DNA of 64,000 nucleotides from a virus. The notes beneath the pieces were generated by a model, which was not told the origin of the DNA, ran no database searches, and worked only from the letters and a program-made list of their open reading frames with translations. Every line of letters begins with the position of its first letter. Positions within the stretch are counted from its first letter, which is position 1. The translations under genes and the position numbers were made by a program. This document shows positions 18,771 to 58,757 of this stretch, one piece after another. The stretch spans positions 38,421 through 102,420 of IMG/VR virus record IMGVR_UViG_3300028840_002150. One strand, given 5' to 3'.

Positions 18771-19071
18771 ACCCGCGGCAGAATCGCCGCTCTGGAGCTT
18801 CCGCAAATACGACCGACCGGACGATGTAGGGTGGGCCGGTTGGATCGAAGTATGCGGAGAGATAATCGCGTTTATCGGGCTGGATAGGCGGATAACATGG
18901 GCAAATCCGCCGCAGCCTTTGAGGAACAGTTTCGAGTGCCCGCACTGTGGCCGAACACACGACCCGGCGGCGGAAGACGCCGAGCACCATTGTATTCCGC
19001 AACTAACCCCAGGCCGTCCACCGCATATTGTGTGTCCAGGATGCGGCAAGTGCATGGGGTGTGATGAATAA
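18757..19071 (+). CDS. Zinc-ribbon protein, 104 aa
   Basis: CPHCG (about residue 61) and CPGCGKCMGC near the C-terminus form one or two zinc ribbons. The N-terminal half is a small beta-rich domain. No specific family. Confidence 0.75.
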   Translation: MTANEPAAESPLWSFRKYDRPDDVGWAGWIEVCGEIIAFIGLDRRITWANPPQPLRNSFECPHCGRTHDPAAEDAEHHCIPQLTPGRPPHIVCPGCGKCMGCDE

Positions 19072-19088
19072 GAGCCAAGGGGAACGGC

Positions 19089-19613
19089 ATGGCAATTGAC
19101 CTACAGGCGTTTTGCGACGAAGAATGTCAACCCAGATATGCAAGGAAGGATTCCTTGAACCTAACACGACCGTTCGAGATTGAGCTGCAATTCCCGTGGG
19201 CGAGCGGCACTTACGCGGCGGCCACGGACGCGGCAATCATCGTCGTGTCGAAACAGCCGTTGCCGTGGTTTCCGCCAGGGCCGTTTCCGAAGGTGCATGT
19301 AGCGCTCGCCGATTTTCCGCAAGATCGGCCGCGCAAATGGCGCAAGCTACCGGAACCCCGCCGGTGTGCCGAATGCAACGGGCTGGGGGTGCTGAAGCAT
19401 ACTTGCGAAAGCTGGTATTGCAGGCGTACCCACTACGGCCGAACGTGCGACAAGTGCCAACTTTCCATCGGCAAAAAACGCCTGTCCCAGTGGTACGCAA
19501 ATAAGATCCGCAGCTTGCCGGATGCTGCAATTTGGTCCGACGATGCGGACCCGTGCTCGCCAATTTGGTTTCGGTTTATCGGCGGGTTCGGGGCCGTGAT
19601 GCCTACGGCGTGA
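19089..19613 (+). CDS. Zinc-site hypothetical protein, 174 aa
   Basis: Residues 95-130 contain RCAECNGLG, then CESWYCRRTHYGRTCDKCQL, similar to the zinc insert of many phage proteins of unknown role. The N-terminal 85 residues are beta-rich with an exposed proline-rich loop (PWFPPGPFPK). AAGGGGA precedes the start. Confidence 0.75.
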   Translation: MAIDLQAFCDEECQPRYARKDSLNLTRPFEIELQFPWASGTYAAATDAAIIVVSKQPLPWFPPGPFPKVHVALADFPQDRPRKWRKLPEPRRCAECNGLGVLKHTCESWYCRRTHYGRTCDKCQLSIGKKRLSQWYANKIRSLPDAAIWSDDADPCSPIWFRFIGGFGAVMPTA

Positions 19614-19655
19614 TGACCGGGGTGGCGTCTACCTTGCCCCGTGTCCCCCTATCCA

Positions 19656-19667
19656 GTAGAGATCCCC
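19656..19667 (+). promoter_or_regulatory. GTAGAGATCCC motif, copy 1
   Basis: The 12-mer GTAGAGATCCCC lies 17 bp upstream of the Dam-type methyltransferase, at the left end of the portal/head block. The same motif precedes two other late blocks. Confidence 0.45.
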
Positions 19668-19684
19668 ACTGAGTATCGGTCGAA

Positions 19685-20125
19685 ATGCCGCACGCGCACT
19701 TTCGGAACGGTTCGGACAGGTGGGCCACCCCGGTGTGGCTGTTTGAGGCACTGGACCGGGAATTCGGCTTCACCCTGGACGTGTGCGCGGAACCGGAGAC
19801 GGCCAAATGCAAGCGGTTCTTCGGCCCGGAGGAAAACGGGCTACTGAAGAACTGGGGGTCCGAAATATGCTGGATGAATCCGCCCTACTCCGCTACCGCC
19901 AAGTGGATGGCCAAGGCCCACAATGCGGCCAACGAGGGGGCCACCGTTGTTTGCCTGGTGCCGAGCAAGACCGATGCCATCTGGTTCCACCGGTATGCCT
20001 TGAAGCACGAGTGCCGGTTTGTCAAGGGTCGGCTGCGGTTCGGCGGGCCGGATGCCGACAAGGCCCCATTCGCCTCGCTGGTGGTGGTCATGCGGCCGGA
20101 TTCTTTCCGGTTGTGCTCTTTGTAG
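19685..20125 (+). CDS. Phage Dam-type N6-adenine methyltransferase, 146 aa
   Basis: Matches the short phage Dam family (DNA N-6-adenine-methyltransferase, Dam_2): an N-terminal DRWATPVWLFEALDREFGF, LDVCAEP, the catalytic WMNPPYS (about residue 63) and VVCLVPSKTDAIWFH. Length of about 150 is normal. It modifies adenine, classically in GATC-like sites, to resist host or competitor nucleases. No good Shine-Dalgarno; starts the block leading to the portal. Confidence 0.88.
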   Translation: MPHAHFRNGSDRWATPVWLFEALDREFGFTLDVCAEPETAKCKRFFGPEENGLLKNWGSEICWMNPPYSATAKWMAKAHNAANEGATVVCLVPSKTDAIWFHRYALKHECRFVKGRLRFGGPDADKAPFASLVVVMRPDSFRLCSL

Positions 20126-58061: not shown

Positions 58062-58588
58062 ATGACACGCGGGGCGAGCGGCTCGAAGAATCGGTTGGAC
58101 CGATCCTGTCAAACCGGGCTGGCTTACCGGGGTTCGTGGCCCCGGCGCCCCACTTACCGGGAAACGTCCCTGGTAACAGGTAGTTTAGGCATATGAAACC
58201 TGGCGCGATGACAAGCGCGAATTATCCCAAGCCCGTGGCGGTGTGAGGCCGCCATTGCAACAGGATGGAACGCGATGTACCCCGTGCAAGACCTTTCGGC
58301 CGCTTATCCCATAACGCGGCGCTCAGTGACCACGACTTTCGGTGGGCGACCGGCCAGTTGGAGGCTGGTTAGCAGTCAAACGAGAAAGGTGCGTGCCGTG
58401 GACCGACATCCCAGACAACACCCAAGCATCGGCGGGTGGGGAGACGCGAGAGACGGCGGGCCGGCGGGACGCTGCCGGATAGCCAAGTACATCGAGCGGG
58501 TTCGAGGCCCGCGGTTGCAATTCGGCGGCTTACGCAGATGGGCCGTCGGCTACTACTTTTTGCTCGCCGTTCGTTGCGGCGGGCGTTT
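58062..58588 (+). other. 527-bp gene-free, hairpin-rich stretch
   Basis: No convincing gene. It holds several 5-6 bp stems with 7-nt loops: at 58123-58141 (loop TTCGTGG), 58238-58254 (loop TGTGAGG), 58496-58512 (loop TTCGAGG) and 58565-58581 (loop TTCGTTG). They look like isolated tRNA T-arms, but I could not complete cloverleaves for them. Possibly degenerate tRNAs or a structured RNA. Confidence 0.5.
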
Positions 58589-58672
58589 GTGTGAGTGGTG
58601 AAACGGTATCACTCCGGGTTAGACGCATAAAAGTCTAGCTCGGCGTTTCGGGTTCGAATCCCGGCTCACGCT
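58589..58672 (+). tRNA. tRNA-like gene with an 11-bp anticodon stem (CAU in loop)
   Basis: Acceptor GTGTGAG (58589-58595) pairs with CTCACGC (58665-58671). The D-arm is GTGA-AACGGTA-TCAC, the variable loop CGTT, and the T-arm TCGGG-TTCGAAT-CCCGG, all canonical. The anticodon stem CCGGG/CTCGG (58614-58618 with 58639-58643) continues for six more pairs into an 8-nt loop GCATAAAA that contains CAT. Normal tRNAs have 5 pairs and a 7-nt loop. CCA is not encoded; a T-rich tract follows. It may be non-translating or a decoy. Confidence 0.7.
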
Positions 58673-58725
58673 TTTACTTTTTGGGTAGCCCAGGCCAAAG
58701 CGGCGTTAGCCGTGTAGGTAGGCCA

Positions 58726-58757
58726 CGGGCGGCATGCTCTACCGGGCATGCCGCCCG
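58726..58757 (+). repeat. 12-bp perfect hairpin before the HNH gene
   Basis: CGGGCGGCATGC pairs with GCATGCCGCCCG around an 8-nt loop. No T tract follows. It lies 28 bp upstream of the HNH start and could control its expression or be an RNA-processing site. Confidence 0.7.

What the first reader, a model, noticed from the sequence alone, without database searches (positions are those of the whole stretch)
58589..58672. tRNA-like gene with a doubled anticodon stem
All arms are canonical except the anticodon arm, which has 11 continuous pairs and an 8-nt loop with CAU. The extra 13 nt form their own 6-bp stem, so compensating pairing is kept. Such an RNA could hardly decode normally; it might be a decoy for host anticodon nucleases, a primer, or a tRNA needing processing.
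Basis: partly seen in the sequence, partly recalled or inferred. Interest (0 to 1): 0.7.

Follow-up and report, generated by a model that had tools for sequence, protein, structure and literature searches.

The report
Phage tRNA with elongated anticodon hairpin
The only tRNA gene found in a temperate bacterial virus has an intact tRNA body, but a 13-base insert turns its decoding loop into an 11-base-pair hairpin, so the RNA should be unable to read codons and is either a tRNA kept for some other job or a freshly broken one.

Summary
Window 58589-58672 is the only credible tRNA in a 102,420-bp temperate phage contig (Rfam tRNA, 41.2 bits). The acceptor (7 bp), D (4 bp) and T (5 bp) arms and the conserved body bases are intact. 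The anticodon arm has 11 unbroken pairs (two G-U) and an 8-nt loop, GCATAAAA. Shuffling the loop gives six extra pairs in 0.12% of trials. ARAGORN misfolds it as tRNA-Arg(CCG) unless introns are allowed; it then removes AGACGCATAAAAG and leaves a plausible tRNA-Arg(UCU) loop, so a 13-nt insertion into a normal loop is the likely origin.

Of 104 phage tRNAs sharing its D arm, none has such an arm; of 1,121 stringent phage tRNA-like sequences, one other has a stem of 8 bp or more. Splicing is unlikely: no RtcB, RNA ligase or splicing endonuclease was found in the contig. A decoy role is possible but has no direct support.

I lean slightly to a retained non-decoding tRNA-like RNA (0.45) over a recent pseudogene (0.38). 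The survey also found a widespread phage tRNA-Leu-like family whose anticodon region is replaced by variable sequence.

The parts
58589..58672 (+). tRNA-like gene, 84 nt to discriminator U73; no encoded CCA
   Evidence: Rfam RF00005 41.2 bits; ARAGORN with intron option
58589..58595 (+). acceptor stem 5' strand GTGTGAG
   Evidence: 7 of 7 pairs with 58665-58671
58598..58612 (+). D arm GTGA-AACGGTA-TCAC with A14, G18G19, A21
   Evidence: the same D-arm pattern occurs in 105 phage stretches
58614..58643 (+). elongated anticodon arm, 11 continuous pairs, 8-nt loop
   Evidence: pair probabilities 0.98-1.0
58625..58632 (+). apical loop GCATAAAA; CAT at 58626-58628, no U33
58621..58633 (+). 13-nt insert in ARAGORN's parse (AGACGCATAAAAG, between positions 33 and 34); its exact ends are ambiguous
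58648..58664 (+). T arm TCGGG-TTCGAAT-CCCGG
58665..58671 (+). acceptor stem 3' strand CTCACGC; U73 and U-rich TTTTACTTTTT follow
58062..58588 (+). gene-poor stretch upstream: stops in most frames, no Rfam match, folding not above neighbouring coding DNA

Best explanation
A phage tRNA gene, once with a normal 7-nt anticodon loop (best parse U-U-UCU-A-G, tRNA-Arg), gained 13 nt that fold back and extend the anticodon stem to 11 pairs. Shown from sequence: an intact tRNA body, an elongated continuous arm, and no standard anticodon loop. Inferred: the transcript can still be trimmed by RNase P and 3' nucleases and get CCA added, because those enzymes read the acceptor and T arms, but it cannot sit normally in the ribosomal A site. 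Inferred and uncertain: the phage keeps it as a non-decoding tRNA mimic that engages a protein recognising the tRNA body, such as a host tRNA-binding or tRNA-targeting factor, rather than as an adaptor.
For: Body arms fully paired and conserved bases present. Extra pairing unlikely by chance, 0.12% of loop shuffles. Ends of the 20-nt loop fit a normal loop with U33 and A37. Only credible tRNA in the contig. Other phages keep tRNA-like genes without a usable anticodon arm: one near-invariant family in 10 contigs and one in at least 121 contigs. Two distant relatives by terminase or DnaB, L065 and L066, also carry enlarged anticodon arms. A pseudo-tRNA with a role outside translation is documented in Bacillus cereus (PMC3399842).
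Against: Single sequence, so no test of selection. No orthologue found. No expression data. No target or partner gene identified. The analogous phage families are unrelated in sequence and their function is unknown too. An intact body is equally expected of a recent pseudogene. U73 and U20 do not match Escherichia coli Arg identity (general knowledge), so the ancestral identity is unsure.
Confidence: 0.45

Rival explanations
1. Recent pseudogene: a normal phage tRNA hit by a quasi-palindromic 13-nt insertion (for example template switching, which makes hairpins by itself), not yet decayed and without function.
For: Singleton with no close relatives. None of 104 parsed phage tRNAs with the same D arm is elongated. 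Only one other stem of 8 bp or more among 1,121 stringent phage tRNA-like sequences. The insert-removed loop looks normal.
Against: No other lesion in the body; phages tend to lose useless DNA (general knowledge).
Confidence: 0.38
2. Intron-containing tRNA: the 13 nt pair with the anticodon and are removed to give tRNA-Arg(UCU).
For: ARAGORN parse with a U33-UCU-A37 loop and AGA in the insert pairing with UCU.
Against: No RtcB, PF09414 RNA ligase or splicing endonuclease found in the contig. Continuous helix, no bulge-helix-bulge. Too short to self-splice. The contig has DnaB, sigma factor and integrase of bacterial-phage type. Arg identity bases not met.
Confidence: 0.07
3. The tRNA-like fold is a structural cap, processing site or attachment-related remnant in a larger RNA or DNA element, not a free tRNA.
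For: It follows a 527-bp gene-poor stretch holding a second T-arm-like CGGGTTCGAGGCCCG and precedes a U-rich run; Bacillus cereus tRNAOther lies inside a longer RNA (PMC3399842).
Against: The upstream stretch folds no better than neighbouring coding DNA (z -1.6 against -1.5); no Rfam match; the likely attP is elsewhere, beside the integrase.
Confidence: 0.1

Closest known systems
Canonical phage-encoded tRNAs
   Same: Acceptor, D and T arms, conserved bases, length after removing 13 nt
   Different: 11-bp anticodon stem, 8-nt loop, no standard anticodon
Bacillus cereus tRNAOther pseudo-tRNA (PMC3399842)
   Same: tRNA-like RNA not expected to work in translation, near or in a mobile element
   Different: tRNAOther has a Trp anticodon and sits in a longer regulatory RNA; no sequence relation tested
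Archaeal and eukaryotic intron-containing pre-tRNAs
   Same: Short insert in the anticodon loop that can pair with the anticodon
   Different: No bulge-helix-bulge, position 33/34, bacterial-type phage, no splicing enzymes in the contig
Phage tRNAs with anticodon-loop mutations proposed to evade tRNA-targeting defences (PMC10264068)
   Same: Phage tRNA with the anticodon region altered
   Different: That paper's text has no mention of anticodon-stem changes or insertions; here the loop is replaced by a hairpin
AGTCAGG and TCATTTG tRNA-like families of this survey
   Same: tRNA body with a non-decoding middle
   Different: Different bodies and inserts; no shared motif with the window element

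Membership tests
Functional elongator tRNA | Cloverleaf body with conserved bases | tested here: met
Functional elongator tRNA | 5-bp anticodon stem and 7-nt loop with U33 | tested here: not met
   11 bp and 8 nt, no U33 before CAU
Functional elongator tRNA | Aminoacylation and polysome association | not testable with these tools
   needs experiment
Class II tRNA (Leu, Ser, Tyr) | Normal anticodon arm plus long variable arm | tested here: not met
   no 5-7-5 arm found by hand; variable region is 4 nt
Bulge-helix-bulge tRNA intron | Two 3-nt bulges around a 4-bp helix at the splice sites | tested here: not met
   continuous helix
Bulge-helix-bulge tRNA intron | Splicing endonuclease and ligase available | tested here: inconclusive
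   none in the contig; host unknown
Group I or II intron | Catalytic core | tested here: not met
   insert is 13 nt
tRNA pseudogene | Orthologues normal while this copy is disrupted | tested here: inconclusive
   no orthologue found
Non-decoding tRNA-like RNA (pseudo-tRNA) | tRNA fold, no usable anticodon | tested here: met
Non-decoding tRNA-like RNA (pseudo-tRNA) | Expressed, with a role outside translation | not testable with these tools
   needs RNA data

The most novel reading that the evidence does not exclude
Phages maintain tRNA-bodied RNAs whose anticodon arm has been replaced by a different structure, used to engage host tRNA-handling proteins rather than to decode; the window gene is a hairpin-armed example.
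Probability: 0.3. Interest if true: 0.8.

Novelty: new variant of a known kind. Interest (0 to 1): 0.42.

Why it matters
Phage tRNAs are usually explained by codon supply or by replacing tRNAs cut by defences. A tRNA body that is kept although it cannot decode would need a third explanation, testable by deletion and pull-down. Standard annotation hides such genes: without an intron option ARAGORN calls this one tRNA-Arg(CCG) with a wrong fold.

Tried and rejected
Class II reading with a long variable arm: no 5-7-5 arm exists. tmRNA or another known RNA in the upstream 527 nt: no Rfam match of note up to E 10 and no excess folding. Shared payload motif with the AGTCAGG family (CATAAAAG): 1 of 96 clusters, taken as chance. 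A source for the insert elsewhere in the contig: only 9-mer matches. L010 tRNA-Met as a syntenic orthologue: gene content around it does not match apart from DnaB and one other protein. Overlap with attP: the likely attP lies beside the integrase, 78 kb away along the contig. blastn of the region against phages and plasmids: no relative.

Full report
What is there. The window is bases 38421-102420 of a 102,420-bp virus record. It encodes a terminase, portal, tail-tube protein and DnaB helicase, and the contig also holds sigma factor, RecT, exonuclease VIII and a tyrosine integrase, so it is a temperate tailed phage of bacteria; the host is unknown. Across the contig ARAGORN and Rfam find one credible tRNA, at 58589-58672 (two intron-mode or relaxed-score ARAGORN calls were set aside as spurious). 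Its acceptor, D and T stems are complete and U8, A14, G18G19, A21, T54T55C56 and A58 are present. Between the D and T arms lie T26, an 11-pair hairpin with an 8-nt loop, and a 4-nt variable region. The minimum-energy fold shows this long arm, z -4.6 for the whole RNA. Restricting the arm to a 5-bp stem costs 14 kcal/mol (-35.3 against -21.3).

Chance and origin. Shuffling the 20-nt loop gives six or more continuing pairs in 0.12% of trials. ARAGORN with introns allowed removes AGACGCATAAAAG and leaves loop TTTCTAG, a plausible tRNA-Arg(UCU) loop; other cuts are possible. The insert's AGA pairs with UCU, so the hairpin could come from a quasi-palindromic insertion. This is an inference.

Relatives. 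The nearest terminase is 43% identical and the nearest DnaB 39%. Exact D-arm and T-arm/acceptor patterns find no relative. In 28 records searched with the tRNA family, five hits besides the window's own were seen: a normal tRNA-Cys in L062, a CUA-anticodon tRNA in L063, a weak hit in L067, and two with enlarged anticodon arms, L065 (CTGAG-TGCT-GAGGGCG-AGCA-T-CTCAG) and L066 (27.9 bits, below the cut-off). The last two are too distant to be called orthologues. The D-arm pattern of the window tRNA occurs in 105 viral stretches; 104 tRNAs were parsed, 103 with a normal-length middle and one class II, none elongated. A stringent structural scan of the phage loci held at that point found 778 class I, 271 class II-like, 52 other long, 19 other and one other stem of 8 bp or more, in L069. 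These loci were partly chosen by tRNA patterns, so the rates are not unbiased.

Mechanism. The body should be a substrate for tRNA maturation and the arm should block decoding; both are inferences from general tRNA knowledge. Splicing lacks machinery in the contig. The choice between a kept mimic and a fresh pseudogene is close to even. I lean to the mimic because the body is clean and because other phages do keep tRNA-like genes without anticodons, but those families are unrelated and uncharacterised, so this is weak support.

Side result. Only 2 of 159 have a perfect 5-7-5 arm with U33, and there are up to seven copies per contig. Parts of the two ends were in the search pattern (AGTCAGGTGG and CCTGTCCTGA), but the T loop and the bases after the acceptor were not, and they are conserved. 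L066 shares a stretch (GTACAGCCCAACCATAAAGAG) with one cluster of this family although its acceptor differs; I read this by eye. Some members score above the Rfam tRNA cut-off. My literature searches did not show a description, but they cover only an open-licence library and few terms.

Noticed in passing
L307, L338, L389, L390, L395, L074, L071, L153 and others: Widespread phage tRNA-Leu-like family AGTCAGG...CCTGACTAC with roughly 30-95 nt of variable sequence in place of the anticodon and variable arms; 159 unique in 121 contigs, up to 7 per contig.
   Followed up: partly
L088:433-517, L136:382-468, L138:3990-4074, L295-L301: Near-invariant tRNA-like gene TCATTTG...CAAATGA with a 19-nt odd anticodon loop in 10 contigs, downstream of tRNA-Ile in tRNA clusters in the three contigs checked.
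   Followed up: partly
L203:4212-4314, L209:752-854, L104:8640-8737, L112, L116: tRNA-like genes sharing AGGAAGTCCGAGA...GTAGGCA in the middle; those in L203 and L209 encode CCA.
   Followed up: no
L066:1501-1599: tRNA-like in a DnaB relative shares GTACAGCCCAACCATAAAGAG with one AGTCAGG cluster despite a different acceptor.
   Followed up: no
L021:18840-18913: tRNA 3' half (GGGGCCGGGTTCGATTCCCGGACGTGCGA) just past the stop of the tyrosine integrase gene (18914-19789, minus strand): likely attP of this phage.
   Followed up: partly
window 58497-58511 and 58549-58562: Second T-arm-like CGGGTTCGAGGCCCG and a near-repeat of the U-rich trailer upstream of the tRNA.
   Followed up: partly
window 58727-58756: Perfect 11-bp GC-rich hairpin GGGCGGCATGC...GCATGCCGCCC downstream of the tRNA.
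   Followed up: no
L063:1498-1572: CUA-anticodon (amber-reading) tRNA in a distant DnaB-relative phage.
   Followed up: no
window 58578-58673: ARAGORN without introns calls tRNA-Arg(CCG) with a wrong fold; an annotation trap.
   Followed up: yes
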